Assembly: GCF_026626705.1 (NCBI RefSeq) | Contig: NZ_JAPNKC010000001.1 | Span: 2,728,001 to 2,792,000 of the forward strand | Direction of reading: 5' to 3' | Source of the DNA: Pyxidicoccus sp. MSG2 | GTDB lineage: Bacteria > Myxococcota > Myxococcia > Myxococcales > Myxococcaceae | Length of the DNA: 64,000 bases | Shown: positions 27,565 through 63,738 of the stretch, one piece after another | How the letters are laid out: each line of letters opens with the position of its first letter | Numbering within the stretch: position 1 is the stretch's first letter | The notes under the pieces: model-generated | What the model was told of the DNA's origin: nothing | Databases searched by the model: none | What the model saw: the letters and a program-made list of their open reading frames with translations, nothing else | Translations under genes and position numbers: made by a program

Positions 27565-28206
27565 TTGAAGCTGCGCTCAACGGTGCTGGTCGCGATTCTC
27601 GCCGGATGCTCCACGACTCACGGGACGGGCGGGTCTGGTTCCGATCCAGCACCAGGGAGCCAACCCGCGACGAAGAAAGAGCTGCCCTGGATTCCAGTGT
27701 TCGGCGGGCGGATGAAGACGACTCTCTTCTACGGTCCCTGGCAGTGCAGGCAGGAGTTCATGCGAACGTGCCAGCGGGAGTGCGCCCGGGTCATGGGCTG
27801 CATGTGGCTGGCCGACATCAAGCTGGATTGGGAAGGGCGATTGGTCGTCCCACCGCTTCCCGTCAAAGCCGGCAGCCGCTACGGCATCTCCCACTGCTGC
27901 TGCGACTATCCCAAGTTGTCGCCGGACAAGAAGGAGGCTGAACGGAAGAGATGGGAGAACTTCCGGACTTCCTTCCGGAAGGACTGGAGCAAGAAGTTCG
28001 GAGACTGGCCCGAAGAGGAGGGCGTGGCCTGGCCCGGGCACCACATCCGGGACCTTCATCACGGCGGCGATCCGGTGGACCCCAGCAACATCATCCCCGT
28101 CGAGCCGAGCGTGCATACCGTCTTCAACAAGGCGTATCCCGCCTGCTACGGAGGTCAGGCACCCTGGAATACAGTGGGGCCCAATCTGCCTTACTCGGAC
28201 AACTGA
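27565..28206 (+). CDS. TIGR02269-like lipoprotein with HNH-like nuclease C-terminus (putative toxin), copy 1
   Basis: I choose the TTG at 27565, preceded by AGGAGGA with 7-base spacing, giving 213 residues. It opens with a lipoprotein signal (MKLRSTVLVAILAGC). The middle has conserved cysteines (YGPWQC, SHCCCDY). The C-terminus carries WPGHHIRDLHHGG, then DPSNIIPV, then VHTVFNKAYPACY, a His/Asn pattern resembling HNH-type nucleases. A SMI1/KNR4 gene follows after 2 bases. Together these suggest a lipoprotein toxin with its immunity protein, comparable to the SitA/SitI cassettes of Myxococcus. The nuclease activity and toxin role are inferences; no catalytic assignment is certain. Confidence 0.75.
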   Translation: MKLRSTVLVAILAGCSTTHGTGGSGSDPAPGSQPATKKELPWIPVFGGRMKTTLFYGPWQCRQEFMRTCQRECARVMGCMWLADIKLDWEGRLVVPPLPVKAGSRYGISHCCCDYPKLSPDKKEAERKRWENFRTSFRKDWSKKFGDWPEEEGVAWPGHHIRDLHHGGDPVDPSNIIPVEPSVHTVFNKAYPACYGGQAPWNTVGPNLPYSDN

Positions 28207-28208
28207 CG

Positions 28209-28682
28209 ATGGCCACGCCCATGAGCAGCCTGCTCGAAGAGGTCTCCCGCGAGCACTTCCCGTATCCGCCCGCCGCACCCGAAGAGATCGATGCGTTCGA
28301 GCGTCGGGTTGGCTGGAAGTTGGACCCGGACCTGCGCGCCTTCTACCTGCACTGCAATGGAGCGGAGCTGATTGAGCGGCTCCCGGAAACCCCTTACCGC
28401 GTCCTCCCGCTGCACAAGATCGTCCGAGCGCGGGTGGCCATCTACGGCGAAGATGACGACAAGTGGGGACCGGCCTCGGTGTACGCGTTCTGCGATGTGC
28501 AGGACGGCAACTACGTGTTGGTGGACGTGGCCCGACAGGAGAATGGCCACTATCCCCTCTTCGACGGGGACCACGAGGCGTGGCCGGACCCGGCCTACTG
28601 CAAGCAGGTCGCCAGTTCCTTCTCGGAGTTCCTGGAGCAGGTACTGCGCACCCGACGCGGCCTCTACTGGCTGGGGGAGTGA
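28209..28682 (+). CDS. SMI1/KNR4 (SUKH) family protein, putative immunity protein, copy 1
   Basis: The 157-residue protein matches the SMI1/KNR4 superfamily: helical start (LLEEVSREHFPYPPAAPEEI), then DAFERRVGWKLDPDLRAFY with the conserved Asp/Arg-Phe-Tyr and HCNGAELIERL. A central strand pair follows. SUKH proteins are widely used as immunity proteins of polymorphic nuclease toxins. The gene begins 2 bases after the upstream lipoprotein stop, so the two are translated together, as expected for toxin and antidote. The cytoplasmic location fits neutralisation of a nuclease. Confidence 0.85.
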   Translation: MATPMSSLLEEVSREHFPYPPAAPEEIDAFERRVGWKLDPDLRAFYLHCNGAELIERLPETPYRVLPLHKIVRARVAIYGEDDDKWGPASVYAFCDVQDGNYVLVDVARQENGHYPLFDGDHEAWPDPAYCKQVASSFSEFLEQVLRTRRGLYWLGE

Positions 28683-48250: not shown

Positions 48251-48892
48251 GTGTTTGCCCCCTCCGAGTATCGTCCGCTCGTCGTCGCGCTCACCGCGTC
48301 GGCCCTCGCAGCATGCGGCTCGGCCACGGTCGGCGCAGTCGGCATGCCCCCCGCCACTGCAAGGTGGGTCGGGCCGGCGGTGCCGAGCCCCAACGGCGGC
48401 CGGGTGACCACGACCATCTATTACGGCCCGTGGCAGTGCAACGCCAAGCAGCTGGGGCGCTGCCAGCGCCAGTGCGCATCCGAGGGCCGCGTGCTCATGG
48501 GCTGCATCTGGCTCGCGGACATCAAGGGCGATTGGGTCGGGCGCTTCATGTTCCTCCCGGCGGAGGGTGGCACCCGCTATCCGCTCACTCACTGCTGCTG
48601 CGACTACGCGACTGTCGACCCCCGGCGCGGCAGAGGCATCTGGGACAACGCCCGGGACGCGTTCCGGGCGAACTGGATTGAGGAGTTCGGCACATGGCCC
48701 GGCACAGCCGGCCGCAACTGGCCGGGCCACCACATTCGCGACCTCGGCCACGGAGGGCACCCCACCGACCCGAGCAACATTCTGCCCGTGCCGGACCCTG
48801 TCCACACGCTCTTCAACAACGCCTATCCGCAGTGCTACGCGCGCGGCAGTCGGTGGTCCACCCCCGGGCCCAACATCCCCTACAGCGACTAG
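48251..48892 (+). CDS. TIGR02269-like lipoprotein with HNH-like nuclease C-terminus (putative toxin), copy 2
   Basis: From a GTG at 48251 the product has 213 residues, the same length as the copy at 27.6 kb. A lipobox (LAAC) follows a short hydrophobic stretch. The shared core contains YYGPWQC, GCIWLADIKGDW, THCCCDY and the C-terminal WPGHHIRDLGHGG, DPSNILPV and VHTLFNNAYPQCY, almost the same as in copy 1, whereas the N-terminal linker differs. The start is uncertain, since no ribosome site is clear. A SMI1/KNR4 gene follows after 3 bases. The role as a lipoprotein toxin is inferred from this pairing. Confidence 0.72.
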   Translation: MFAPSEYRPLVVALTASALAACGSATVGAVGMPPATARWVGPAVPSPNGGRVTTTIYYGPWQCNAKQLGRCQRQCASEGRVLMGCIWLADIKGDWVGRFMFLPAEGGTRYPLTHCCCDYATVDPRRGRGIWDNARDAFRANWIEEFGTWPGTAGRNWPGHHIRDLGHGGHPTDPSNILPVPDPVHTLFNNAYPQCYARGSRWSTPGPNIPYSD

Positions 48893-48895
48893 CCC

Positions 48896-49357
48896 ATGAC
48901 GCCAACCCTGGACCAGCTCCTGGCCACCGTGGTGCGCGAGCACTACCCGCACCCTCCCGCGACCGAGGCGGAGATTGCCGCGTTCGAATCACGCGCGGGC
49001 TGGCAGCTCGGAGCCGAGCTGCGCGCCTTCTACTTGCGGTGCAATGGCGCGGAGCTGTTCGAGCCGCTGCCCAACGCGCGCTACAGCCTCCTCTCTCTCG
49101 GAGAGCTACAACGCGCCCGCGTTCGAATGCGCGGCAGCGACGATGACTCCATGGGCCCCGCGTCCTGGTGGACGCTGGTGGACTGCCAGGACTCGGATTT
49201 CATCTTGGTGGACGTGGCCCAGCCGCCCCCCTATCCCTTGTTGGATGCGTACCACGGCACATATCCGGCCGTGACGCCCGTGGCAGCGTCGCTCCGCGAG
49301 TTTCTGGCGCGAGCCCTCACGAGCAACAACCGCCTCTACTGGCTCCACGATGACTAA
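48896..49357 (+). CDS. SMI1/KNR4 (SUKH) family protein, putative immunity protein, copy 2
   Basis: The 153-residue protein is clearly paralogous to the one at 28.2 kb: REHYPHPPATEAEIAAFESR, then LRAFYLRCNGAELFEPLP and a NRLYWL end against GLYWL. Charged surface loops differ (SDDDSMGPASWWTL against GEDDDKWGPASVYAF), as would be expected if each immunity protein recognises its own toxin. It starts 3 bases after the upstream lipoprotein stop. Confidence 0.83.
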   Translation: MTPTLDQLLATVVREHYPHPPATEAEIAAFESRAGWQLGAELRAFYLRCNGAELFEPLPNARYSLLSLGELQRARVRMRGSDDDSMGPASWWTLVDCQDSDFILVDVAQPPPYPLLDAYHGTYPAVTPVAASLREFLARALTSNNRLYWLHDD

Positions 49358-60537: not shown

Positions 60538-62130
60538 TCAGGACGCCTCCGGGCTGTCCTTGAGGAGCAGGCCCAGGTAGCGGCTGAAATCGAGGGTGCC
60601 GAGCGCGGCCAGCTCGCGCTCCAGTTCCTCGCGGCGCCAGTGGAGGTTGGCGCACTGGCGACGAACCGCGACGAGCTCCAAGCCCAGCACTTCCAGGCGC
60701 GAAGCCCGGGACTTCATAAGTCGTGCGGCCTCCAGCGCCTGGCGGCCCTCGCCTTCCAGTGCGTCCAGCTCGCGCCGCTGCTCGACGAACCGGGCGCTCG
60801 CGGACTTCTCGCGACGGGCGCGCGTGTTCAGCAATTTCTGGAGCCGGGCCTCCACCCGCGCCAGCTCCCGCTGCGTCGTAGCGAGCGACGCCTGGAGCGC
60901 CCTCCGCCGTACGAGGGCTCCCTGTCGCTGGAAGTTGGAGCGCGCCCACAGAAACCCCAGCCCTCCCGTGAGGCCCAGCCCCACCCACCACAGCGGAGAC
61001 AGGGCCACCGCCAGGACGGCGGACAGGCCGCCCGCGAGCAGGATGCCGTTGGCCACCTTGCGGTCCTCCATCGACACCCCAGCGGGCACCGGCGGGGACG
61101 CGGGCGCGGGGACCATGAAGCGCGACACCTCGAGCGCGGCGGTCGGCGCGAGAGGCGCCTTCCCCGGGGGCAGCGCCGCCTTCACCGCGATTCGCGAGGC
61201 CACTGGCGCCGCGGGCAGCTGGATGTCCGCGAGGGCCGCGCCGTCCAGGGGAGGTACCTCGTGCGGAAGGCGCGTCAGGAGCGAGTCCAACAAGAGGGAC
61301 GCCACCGCCCTCACTCGCTCGTGCGGGGAGGACAGCAGGGCCTGGAACAGCGGGGAGCGTTGGCGCTCGACGAAGTCCTTCTTGCGGAACAGCAGGCAGT
61401 CATCGCCGCCCTGGAACCGCGCCCAGAGCGCAGGCTCGTGGGCCAGGGCGACGAGGGAGGCCCACACCCCCCAGGCGGAGAAGTGGTCCAGCCGCTCGTC
61501 GAAGAAGTCCGGGGCGCGGTCCGGGTGCTGGTAGTTGGCGTGCCCGCGCTCGTGGCTCCGGCGCCCGGCGAGGGCGGGGACGAACATGCCGTCGTAGTCC
61601 ACCAGCCGGAGCCCCTCGGGAGCGATGACGACGTTGCCATGCTGGAGGTCGCCATGGGCCACCCGTGCGCGCCGCAGGTCCGCCTGCAGCTCCACCCAGG
61701 CGGCCGCCAGGTCGAACAGCGCCTTGGGCGACGCGTGGTGCTTCTCGACGTGGCGGGCCAGGGACTCGCCCTGGACCCACTCCATCTTCACGACGGGGAA
61801 CCATTCCCCGTGCACCTGGATGCCCTGGGAGAGGAAGGCGACCTCCACGGCGCACGGCATCCGATTCGTCGACAGGTGCCGGATGATTTCCGTGTAGCGC
61901 TCCGACTGGTCGGGCTGGATGGGCCGGGTGAAGCAGCGCACCGCGAAGGAGCGCTCGCCATGGTTCAGCCTGTAGACGGTGGCGAAGTTTCCCGCGCGGG
62001 GCCGGGGCAGTCCCGCCAGGGCCCCGGTCTCCACCAACTCCGGCACGGCGGCCTGGAGCTCCGGGTCGGAGAACGCCTGGCGTGGGTTCTGGATGGCCGC
62101 CTGATAGTCACTGTCGGAAGGCAGCTTCAC
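60538..62130 (-). CDS. Membrane-linked protein kinase of a vWA/PP2C/kinase triad
   Basis: The 530-residue product starts at a GTG immediately after the stop of the phosphatase gene. The N-terminal 300 residues are a protein kinase: nucleotide loop RAGNFATVYRL (about 45-55), catalytic HGDLQHGN (about 159-166) and DYDG (178-181). The usual ATP-binding lysine is an arginine (AVRCF, residue 65), which may be a family trait. A linker and two hydrophobic segments (about 365-400) lead to a coiled coil of about 100 residues. The order resembles kinase partners of TerY. Confidence 0.8.
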   Translation of the reverse strand: MKLPSDSDYQAAIQNPRQAFSDPELQAAVPELVETGALAGLPRPRAGNFATVYRLNHGERSFAVRCFTRPIQPDQSERYTEIIRHLSTNRMPCAVEVAFLSQGIQVHGEWFPVVKMEWVQGESLARHVEKHHASPKALFDLAAAWVELQADLRRARVAHGDLQHGNVVIAPEGLRLVDYDGMFVPALAGRRSHERGHANYQHPDRAPDFFDERLDHFSAWGVWASLVALAHEPALWARFQGGDDCLLFRKKDFVERQRSPLFQALLSSPHERVRAVASLLLDSLLTRLPHEVPPLDGAALADIQLPAAPVASRIAVKAALPPGKAPLAPTAALEVSRFMVPAPASPPVPAGVSMEDRKVANGILLAGGLSAVLAVALSPLWWVGLGLTGGLGFLWARSNFQRQGALVRRRALQASLATTQRELARVEARLQKLLNTRARREKSASARFVEQRRELDALEGEGRQALEAARLMKSRASRLEVLGLELVAVRRQCANLHWRREELERELAALGTLDFSRYLGLLLKDSPEAS

Positions 62131-62895
62131 TCACTTCTCCACGAAGAGCTGGAGGAGCGTCACGTCATCATTGCGGATGGCCTTGCGCGCGCGCAGCCGG
62201 CCGATGAGCGCCTCGAACGCGGCCCTGCCCTCTCCCGATAGCGAGCCGGGAAGTTCCGTCCAGGGGGCCTGCCCGCGCTCGTGCTCCGCGAGGAACCAGC
62301 ACGCCAGCGCGTCCGTCATCAGGAAGAGCGTGTCGCCGTCCCGCAGCGCTCCCGAGGCCACCCGCACCTGCGCGCCCACGCGCCCGTTCTGGTGCGCATG
62401 CGTGGAGATGAGGAACGGCGTGGAGCCGAACGCAGCGGACTGCTCCAGGGGGAAGCTGCGCAGGAGCCCTTCCCGCCGGAGCTGGAAGAGGCACGAGTCC
62501 CCCACCGCGAGCGCTTCCCACATACCGGGGCCATCCGCCGTGGGCGGCGCCATCAGCCGCACGCCCAGGAGCGTGGCGAAGGCGCCCTCTCGGAGCTTCT
62601 CCTCCGCGTACCAGGGAAGTGGTTTGGCACCGACGTGCGCGTGCCACCGACGCTGGAGCTCGGGAAGGACGGCGAGAAGTCCTGCCGCGTCTGTGACTTC
62701 GCCGCTCGCGAAGGCCCCTGAAAGCAGCCGGGCCCAGTGGCCGGAGAAGAGGCTCTCCGTCGCGCCATCCGCGACGGCCGCGAGGAGTGGCGCGACACCG
62801 GAGGCGCCCGCGCTTTCGGGAGCGTACGCGTCCTCGTTCTCGGAGGGCTGGTTGCCCTCCTTCTGCAGCGAGACGGCTTCGATGCGGATGCGCAC
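62131..62895 (-). CDS. PP2C-like protein phosphatase of the triad
   Basis: The 254-residue protein uses a GTG at 62895 with an AGGGGA site. It has the PP2C signature residues: SENEDAYAP, VADGATESLF with the metal Asp, LAVGDSCLF, TDALACWF and NDDVTLLQL at the end. These positions mark a complete metal-dependent phosphatase. It lies between the vWA gene (9-base gap) and the kinase gene (no gap), implying tight co-expression and opposing modification of a common target. Confidence 0.85.
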   Translation of the reverse strand: MRIRIEAVSLQKEGNQPSENEDAYAPESAGASGVAPLLAAVADGATESLFSGHWARLLSGAFASGEVTDAAGLLAVLPELQRRWHAHVGAKPLPWYAEEKLREGAFATLLGVRLMAPPTADGPGMWEALAVGDSCLFQLRREGLLRSFPLEQSAAFGSTPFLISTHAHQNGRVGAQVRVASGALRDGDTLFLMTDALACWFLAEHERGQAPWTELPGSLSGEGRAAFEALIGRLRARKAIRNDDVTLLQLFVEK

Positions 62896-62904
62896 GAACG
62901 TCCC

Positions 62905-63738
62905 CTAACGCAGGTTGCTCGGGCGCGTTCCGATGTTCAGGAACTTGATGAGCGAGATGATGTCCGCGTTGAAGACGAAGCCGCGTGCGCCATCGCCCAC
63001 CTGGAGCCCTTCCTCGCGCGCGGCTGACAGCATGCCCGGCGTCAGCGGGCTGGAGAGTTGGAAGAGGAGCCGCGCGTGCGCGTCCGGCAGCCCCGTGTCC
63101 GAGCTGGGGAACTGGATGGGCGTGGACGGGTGCGCGGACAGGTGCACGTTGAGCAGCAGCACCTCGCCGTCCGTGGTGCGCAGCCCGCGCAACTCGGACG
63201 CAATCGCCGTGGGGTCCCCGTCGGTGGGCTGCCCGTCGGAGATGTTCACCACGATGGGCGGGAAGCCCTCGGGATACCGGCGCACCCAGTCACCCACGAG
63301 GCTCGTCGCGCGGCCGAGCGCCTGGCACATGGGCGTGGCGCCGTTGGCCACCGACTCGAACCAGATGGGGAAGCGGACCTTCTCGCGCACCAGTCCGCCC
63401 ATGCCGTCCTCACGCTCGCGCGTGCGCTCCTCCAGCCGCGCCGGAGCGTGGCCAATCTCGCTGACGGGCACGAGGCTCCGCCCCGCGAGCGGTCCCCGGA
63501 AGGCGGGCCCCACCTCTCCGCCGTAGCCCAGCACGCCCAGATGGAAATAGTCGCGAATGCCCTCCTCGCGCGCGCACCGGACGACCAGGTTCTGCAGGAG
63601 CCGGTTGGTGACGTCCGCCACTCCGTCCGCCTTGCGCCGCTGGGAGCCGCTGAACGGCTCCTCCATGGACCCGGACTGGTCGATGAGGATGAGGATGCAC
63701 GCTGGATTGGTCCGGCTGATCTCCGCCGAGTACGCCAT
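62905..63738 (-). CDS. von Willebrand factor A domain protein (TerY-like)
   Basis: The 277-residue product has a complete MIDAS: DQSGSM at residues 20-25 (Asp20, Ser22, Ser24), a Thr in the NGATPMCQ segment, and the acidic ISDGQPTDG. The overall size and features fit TerY-like vWA proteins. GAAGGGGAAC before the ATG at 63738 supports the start. As the first gene of the phosphatase/kinase operon, it may present the substrate to the two enzymes. Confidence 0.85.
   Translation of the reverse strand: MAYSAEISRTNPACILILIDQSGSMEEPFSGSQRRKADGVADVTNRLLQNLVVRCAREEGIRDYFHLGVLGYGGEVGPAFRGPLAGRSLVPVSEIGHAPARLEERTREREDGMGGLVREKVRFPIWFESVANGATPMCQALGRATSLVGDWVRRYPEGFPPIVVNISDGQPTDGDPTAIASELRGLRTTDGEVLLLNVHLSAHPSTPIQFPSSDTGLPDAHARLLFQLSSPLTPGMLSAAREEGLQVGDGARGFVFNADIISLIKFLNIGTRPSNLR

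What the first reader, a model, noticed from the sequence alone, without database searches (positions are those of the whole stretch)
60538..63738. vWA-PP2C-kinase operon resembling the TerY-P triad
Three genes, with a 9-base gap and then no gap between them, encode the vWA protein, the phosphatase and the kinase. The same triad is known from Ter-type stress systems, but no TerB, TerD or other Ter gene is visible. This may be a stand-alone stress or defence module with an unknown substrate and a membrane-attached kinase.
Basis: partly seen in the sequence, partly recalled or inferred. Interest (0 to 1): 0.68.

Follow-up and report, generated by a model that had tools for sequence, protein, structure and literature searches.

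The report
TerY-P phage-defence triad, hairpin-tailed kinase
Three adjacent genes in a soil bacterium form a known type of switch, a protein kinase, its phosphatase and a metal-binding partner, of the TerY-P kind that protects bacteria from viruses, here with a kinase tail (a predicted membrane hairpin and coiled coil) unlike that of the tested versions.

Summary
In detail: vWA, PP2C and kinase genes lie head to tail on the minus strand with gaps of 9 and 0 bases. They match PADLOC's three TerY-P models, so the right file is a stand-alone TerY-P triad, an already known anti-phage system. TerD was not found anywhere in this genome. The kinase tail is not standard: the PADLOC kinase model matches only its first half, and the rest is a predicted membrane hairpin and coiled coil, not the OB fold or zinc ribbon described for other triads. 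Long-form relatives carry a helix-hairpin-helix stretch matched by profile to the tail of E. coli YegI; the window kinase lacks it. The cassette is accessory: 14 of 27 genomes of the genus have it, at three places, with two empty sites and one decayed remnant. Of 20 loci outside the genus whose neighbours I scanned, at least four have a known defence gene within about 9 kb (restriction, CBASS, BREX PglX, Shedu); no random-locus control was run. The window's own neighbourhood shows no other complete system. Substrate and trigger remain unknown.

The parts
62905..63738 (-). TerY-type vWA protein, 277 aa; MIDAS residues D20-x-S22-x-S24, T135, D168
   Evidence: PADLOC TerY 2.4e-101 over 1-277/277; these residues are invariant in 29 aligned proteins including YegL
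62131..62895 (-). PP2C-type protein phosphatase, 254 aa; putative metal-binding D22, D43, D133, D195, D243/D244
   Evidence: Pfam PP2C_2 8.7e-8; PADLOC PP2C 2.9e-32; these Asp are invariant in 17 aligned proteins and at least 94% conserved in 31 rows
60538..62130 (-). Hanks-like protein kinase with predicted membrane-hairpin and coiled-coil tail, 530 aa
   Evidence: PADLOC STK_OB 4.2e-71 over residues 1-272, profile 1-270/562; AlphaFold2 mean pLDDT 85.6
61261..62130 (-). kinase catalytic domain (about residues 1-290): G-loop from 47, AVRCF at 63 (Arg at the usual Lys position), HGDLQHGN at 159, DYDG at 178
   Evidence: G47, H159-G160-D161, N166, D178 and D180 are invariant in 29 kinases; Foldseek matches to Ser/Thr and Tyr kinases
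60925..61071 (-). predicted transmembrane hairpin, residues 354-402
   Evidence: hydropathy; AlphaFold helices 354-377 and 380-402
60601..60921 (-). helical (coiled-coil) hairpin, residues 404-510; lies where long-form relatives carry a helix-hairpin-helix stretch that is missing here
   Evidence: AlphaFold helices 404-458 and 462-510; long forms in alignment A1
62896..62904 (-). 9-base vWA-PP2C gap with a purine-rich, ribosome-site-like stretch before the PP2C GTG
   Evidence: the ribosome-site reading is by eye

Best explanation
A TerY-P triad with a membrane-hairpin kinase: an accessory anti-phage signalling cassette. Shown by sequence: three adjacent genes of the TerY-P families, conserved catalytic or metal-binding residues, a predicted membrane hairpin and coiled coil on the kinase. 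Inferred: the kinase sits at the inner membrane, its coiled coil pairs it with itself or a partner, and the vWA protein is the metal-dependent adaptor that holds kinase and phosphatase together. In the resting cell PP2C keeps the kinase and its targets dephosphorylated; a phage-borne cue at or near the membrane tips the balance to phosphorylation of host or phage proteins and stops the infection; PP2C then resets the switch.
For: PADLOC models for all three proteins. Conserved catalytic and MIDAS residues. Kinase-fold matches. Predicted membrane segment after residue 285 in 29 of 43 family kinase rows, 29 of 34 once nine Rikenellaceae rows are set aside. Accessory pattern: 14 of 27 genomes in the genus, empty sites and a decayed remnant. 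Defence genes within about 9 kb in L059 and L060, L083 and L092. Two plasmid copies; one viral contig with a related kinase. TerY-P protects P. aeruginosa from Autographiviridae, most cells surviving though some die (passages). E. coli YegI is reported membrane bound and dephosphorylated by PphC (passages).
Against: No phage test exists for this tail type that I found. Among 64 proteins of the window and its right flank no other complete defence system is apparent by eye; scattered matches include five MADS models (mad6 is this kinase; the carriers of mad1, mad2, mad3 and mad8 were not identified). Within each clade of the genus the triad stays at one place among metabolic and regulatory genes. 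The OB fold reported for tested kinases is missing. Between the triad and the CBASS genes of L060 lie radical-SAM and oxygenase genes. The resembling yegL-pphC-yegI locus is core in E. coli (5342 of 5426 genomes), which suits housekeeping as well. No control was made for how often random loci have defence neighbours.
Confidence: 0.65

Rival explanations
1. A stress or envelope-signalling switch rather than phage defence: kinase, phosphatase and vWA protein tune envelope or stress physiology, as may be so for the core E. coli yegL-pphC-yegI locus.
For: Same gene order in E. coli, with yegJ on the other strand between pphC and yegI in K-12; the HhH stretch of the long forms matches YegI at 97.7% and the vWA matches YegL at 92.2%; the E. 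coli locus is core; stable location within each clade.
Against: The window proteins match the TerY-P defence models while the E. coli trio does not at E 0.01; patchy presence and loss; defence neighbours in some relatives. PphC is not detectably close to this PP2C.
Confidence: 0.23
2. A CoCoNuT-type or restriction-coupled triad whose partner genes lie elsewhere in the genome.
For: Zinc-ribbon triads accompany CoCoNuT systems (passages); L059 has a DUF2357-PD-(D/E)xK gene and an AAA-domain gene upstream of its vWA gene on the same strand.
Against: No CxxC in the window kinase after residue 280; no McrBC-like or restriction-enzyme model among the 16 families matched by 64 proteins round the locus. 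The rest of the genome was not searched for such partners.
Confidence: 0.06
3. A decaying remnant without function in this strain.
For: One relative keeps only a broken kinase tail; in the P. caerfyrddinensis-type genome the PP2C gene reads as two overlapping frames.
Against: All three window frames are open with conserved catalytic residues; dN/dS against the nearest relative is 0.10 (vWA) and 0.22 (kinase domain), and 0.25 for PP2C against G002.
Confidence: 0.06

Closest known systems
TerY-P anti-phage system (Gao et al. 2020, not read; seen through passages of PMC7699616, PMC11090510, PMC10889362)
   Same: Three genes vWA, PP2C, kinase; strong PADLOC matches to all three models; stand-alone
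   Different: Kinase tail is a predicted membrane hairpin plus coiled coil instead of an OB fold; it falls in a clade apart from the OB-type kinases L070, L072, L091. Membrane attachment as such may be shared: L070 and L091 also have a predicted C-terminal membrane segment
CoCoNuT-associated TerY-P triad with zinc-ribbon kinase (PMC11090510, passages)
   Same: Same three enzymes
   Different: No zinc ribbon; no CoCoNuT partner seen nearby
E. coli YegL-PphC-YegI
   Same: Gene order vWA-PP2C-kinase on one strand; kinase reported membrane bound (passages); long-form relatives of the window kinase share its HhH stretch
   Different: Kinase domains only weakly alike (hhalign 70%), PP2C not detectably alike, HhH missing in the window protein; core in E. 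coli
Ter-dependent stress operons with TerY (Anantharaman et al. 2012, recalled, not held)
   Same: vWA-PP2C-kinase triad
   Different: No TerD found in the genome

Membership tests
TerY-P triad | adjacent vWA, PP2C and Ser/Thr kinase genes | tested here: met
TerY-P triad | vWA of the TerY-P family with MIDAS motif | tested here: met
   2.4e-101 over the full profile; invariant MIDAS residues
TerY-P triad | PP2C of the TerY-P family with metal-binding Asp | tested here: met
   2.9e-32
TerY-P triad | kinase domain of the TerY-P family | tested here: met
   4.2e-71 for residues 1-272
TerY-P triad | anti-phage activity | not testable with these tools
   needs a phage challenge
OB-type TerY-P (the tested subtype) | C-terminal OB fold on the kinase | tested here: not met
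   profile match ends at 270 of 562, whereas the L070 kinase matches to 494; the AlphaFold tail is helical
CoCoNuT zinc-ribbon TerY-P | C-terminal zinc ribbon on the kinase | tested here: not met
   no CxxC after residue 280
CoCoNuT zinc-ribbon TerY-P | cnuH/cnuE and McrBC-like partner genes | tested here: inconclusive
   none among 64 PADLOC-scanned proteins, but I do not know that PADLOC 2.0.0 holds CoCoNuT models
Ter stress system | TerD genes with the triad | tested here: not met
   0 in the whole genome, 2 of 14 controls ring; TerB and TerC not tested
YegL-PphC-YegI | HhH stretch in the kinase tail | tested here: not met
   present in long-form relatives, missing in the window protein; the match of alignment A2, led by the window kinase, to YegI covers the kinase domain only
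YegL-PphC-YegI | all three proteins homologous beyond fold | tested here: inconclusive
   hhalign probability: vWA 92.2, kinase 70.0, PP2C 0.8

The most novel reading that the evidence does not exclude
The triad belongs to a membrane-hairpin TerY-P subtype whose tail is shared with E. coli YegI, so that the unexplained E. coli K-12 trio YegL-PphC-YegI is a diverged, core TerY-P-type switch; in this subtype infection is sensed at the inner membrane, originally with a DNA-binding helix-hairpin-helix near the anchor (incoming phage DNA?), a piece lost in the window lineage and absent from the Myxococcus-clade kinases.
Probability: 0.25. Interest if true: 0.62.

Novelty: new variant of a known kind. 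Interest (0 to 1): 0.36.

Why it matters
TerY-P is a tested anti-phage system whose trigger and substrate I did not find stated in the passages read. A subtype with a membrane hairpin, and the tail link to E. coli YegI, suggests where the switch may sit and makes a core E. coli kinase of unclear role testable as an infection-sensing switch in an ordinary laboratory strain. It also suggests that the kinase tail (OB fold, HhH, propeller, WG repeats, membrane hairpin) is the interchangeable part, while the vWA protein changes least.

Tried and rejected
Ter genes beyond the right edge: the next genes upstream encode a 295-aa protein with only a weak beta-propeller match (Pfam E 0.025) and a family-B DNA polymerase; TerD not found genome-wide. 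Upstream propeller gene as a fourth part: rejected, because it is missing at the triad of L040 and present without the triad in G020 (L088). Direct BLASTP to YegI and PphC: nothing significant, only YegL at 1e-5; profile comparison was needed. Pfam HHH_5 matched L062 and YegI below its cut-off and was not reported for L039, L040, L060, L061, so the HhH reading rests on alignment A1. Sigma-70 promoter scan: none found, 0.1 expected; uninformative. PDB sequence search: only marginal human-kinase hits for the kinase (best E 0.029), none for the vWA. A pattern search for HhH was unreliable and is not used. The output was cut in the middle (end of L043 to part of L046 not seen); I relied on its cluster sizes and on coordinates. 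In one search the 'AraC_L' query was translated in a wrong frame; the right one was used. PADLOC system rules were not run; all 12 family searches are used, so the carriers of the MADS matches stay unidentified. Searches list only 25 of 57 and 25 of 54 families. The second structure-prediction job and the VIA alignments were not used.

Rows dropped: L055-L058 and L063 are the same loci as ones already held and were left out. The neighbour scan A4 used 33 of the 42 proteins listed (eight triad proteins and one short ORF left out); only two genes of L060 were in it. A6 used 81 of the 111 listed (L091 and a number of mostly shorter ORFs left out). L051-L053 are close relatives of each other, so the 20 loci are not independent.

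Full report
What is there. On the minus strand, vWA 62905-63738, PP2C 62131-62895 and kinase 60538-62130 follow each other with gaps of 9 and 0 bases. The window lies at 2728001-2792000 of the larger contig (13,193,640 bases) of a 13.3-Mb, two-contig genome. The vWA protein is 97% identical to one of Pyxidicoccus caerfyrddinensis, so the genome is a close relative of that species (inference).

What the parts are. PADLOC gives TerY at 2.4e-101 over the whole profile, PP2C at 2.9e-32, and STK_OB at 4.2e-71 for residues 1-272 only (profile 1-270 of 562). Pfam sees PP2C_2 and a kinase-like APH match, and the vWA only below its cut-off; NCBIfam has no match above a cut-off. The MIDAS residues of the vWA (D20, S22, S24, T135, D168) are invariant in 29 aligned proteins, YegL included. 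PP2C residues D22, D43, D133, D195, D243 and D244 are invariant in 17 and at least 94% conserved in 31 rows. In the kinase, H159-G160-D161, N166, D178 and D180 are invariant in 29 sequences; the usual ATP-site lysine is an arginine, as in 16 of the 24 rows, the OB-type L070 and L072 among them. AlphaFold (mean pLDDT 85.6) gives a kinase domain, a loose linker near 300-350, two helices 354-377 and 380-402 that coincide with the hydropathy peak, and a helical hairpin 404-510. Foldseek matches Ser/Thr and Tyr kinases; PknB (1mru) has a target TM-score of 0.60.

Tail types. Across the loci the kinase domain is joined to different tails: OB fold (L070 by the PADLOC profile; L072 and L091 by eye), a propeller (L051; L052 and L053 by eye), WG repeats in Rikenellaceae (L075; others by eye), a cysteine-rich end (L050, by eye), and the membrane hairpin plus coiled coil seen here. 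A predicted membrane segment after residue 285 is in 29 of 43 kinase rows and in none of nine Rikenellaceae rows; OB-type L070 and L091 have one too, so membrane attachment is not special to this tail. Long forms (L059-L062, L039, L040) carry a helix-hairpin-helix-like stretch inside the coiled coil, most degenerate, by eye, in L039 and L040. By profile comparison of these six with YegI, about 104 columns of that stretch match (probability 97.7, E 2.1e-12); nothing else of the proteins aligned there. The window protein and its sister L038 lack the stretch, and by eye so do the Myxococcus-clade kinases; on the kinase tree long forms branch outside both groups and within the Pyxidicoccus-type group, so two losses are the simplest reading. 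dN/dS (NG86) is 0.84 and 0.66 for residues 403-530 against two relatives, 0.22 and 0.33 for the kinase domain, 0.10 and 0.12 for the vWA; eleven whole-gene values for six neighbouring genes run from 0.09 to 0.37 except one at 0.65, so the tail is fast but not alone.

Accessory or core. Strong matches are in 14 of 27 genomes of the genus, own genome included, for kinase (which searched 100 relatives; many of its 51 positives are weak generic kinase matches) and vWA, and in 21 of 145 genomes of the order at E 1e-30 for vWA. Four Pyxidicoccus-type loci (L005, L038, L039, L040) lie beside the polB gene and a fifth (L054) is elsewhere. Nine Myxococcus-type genomes have the triad between an M28 peptidase gene and a beta-lactamase-like gene, some with an extra gene between. 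G012 has those two genes 319 bases apart by the gene calls and no triad; G004 has them with a fragment 63% identical to residues 367-625 of the L045 kinase, broken by a stop. G020 has polB, the propeller gene and a FIST gene with no triad between. The unit is thus gained, moved or lost as a cassette, though it stays in place within each clade. polB itself is in 27 of 27.

Neighbours. Among 64 proteins of the window and its right flank, 16 PADLOC families matched at 1e-5; only the triad looks like a complete system, by eye. Five MADS models are among the matches (mad6 is this kinase); which other proteins carry them was not resolved. Outside the genus I scanned 33 neighbours of five loci and 81 neighbours of fifteen loci. 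L059 has a Type ISP restriction enzyme ending 3.8 kb before its vWA gene and a DUF2357-nuclease gene between; L060 has a TRIP13-HORMA protein and a CD-NTase of CBASS type 6 to 9 kb away, with radical-SAM and oxygenase genes between. The single genes tested of L061 and L064 and two of L062 gave nothing. BrxC, PglX, PglZ and BrxL matches are in the second set; PglX was placed in L083, about 1.5 kb from the vWA gene, and ORF sizes suggest the rest is there too, round the triad (inference). A partial SduA match lies about 4 kb from the Calothrix plasmid triad. So at least 4 of 20 loci have a known defence gene within about 9 kb; no random-locus control was run. Two of 72,556 plasmid records carry the triad; one viral contig carries an OB-type kinase at its edge; none of 50,697 phage records matched the vWA at 1e-5.

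How it probably works. Shown: enzymes and adaptor with conserved motifs, predicted membrane hairpin. Inferred from TerY-P and YegI papers: opposing kinase and phosphatase, with the vWA protein as adaptor. PMC10889362 (passages) reports that TerY-P protects at low and high phage dose with most cells surviving, though some die, which argues against plain suicide. [quoted passage not shown] Where the signal enters, and what is phosphorylated, is not known; a membrane-proximal cue is my inference.

Literature. Seen: passages of PMC7699616, PMC11090510, PMC10889362, PMC4978471, PMC13232886, PMC12189002. Four papers asked for by id were not held; Gao et al. 2020, Anantharaman et al. 2012 and the two YegI/PphC papers are recalled or seen as cited. 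The listings of the nine searches made and the passages read showed no description of a membrane-hairpin TerY-P kinase or a YegI link, but the library lacks most subscription papers, so this is not a claim of absence.

Noticed in passing
L038 7399-8180 (P. caerfyrddinensis-type genome G022): The PP2C gene reads as two overlapping frames while vWA and kinase stay open: a real frameshift or a sequencing error.
   Followed up: no
L005 5818-9230 (right of the window): A 295-aa protein with a weak beta-propeller match follows a family-B DNA polymerase; the polymerase is in 27 of 27 genomes of the genus.
   Followed up: partly
L073-L076, L080-L082, L084: Rikenellaceae loci have a kinase, then a vWA gene, then a second kinase-like gene, with WG-repeat-like tails (Pfam-tested for L075's first kinase only) and no PP2C detected: the phosphatase seems replaced.
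   Followed up: partly
L083 3819-12609: In Runella defluvii the triad lies next to PglX, apparently inside a BREX operon.
   Followed up: partly
L091 102-1748: A viral contig carries an OB-type TerY-P kinase with a predicted C-terminal membrane segment at the contig edge, near what look like phage structural genes.
   Followed up: partly
NC_000913 2149039-2153128 (L085): The yegL-pphC-yegI stretch is held over at least 80% of its length by 5342 of 5426 E. coli genomes.
   Followed up: partly
window and L005, 64 proteins of alignment A3: Matches to several MADS models (mad1, mad2, mad3, mad8 besides the triad kinase as mad6) are scattered round the locus; their carriers were not identified.
   Followed up: no
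window 27697-28682 and 48380-49357: Two similar two-gene pairs, each a small cysteine-rich protein followed by a protein of about 155 aa, look like diverged copies (by eye).
   Followed up: no
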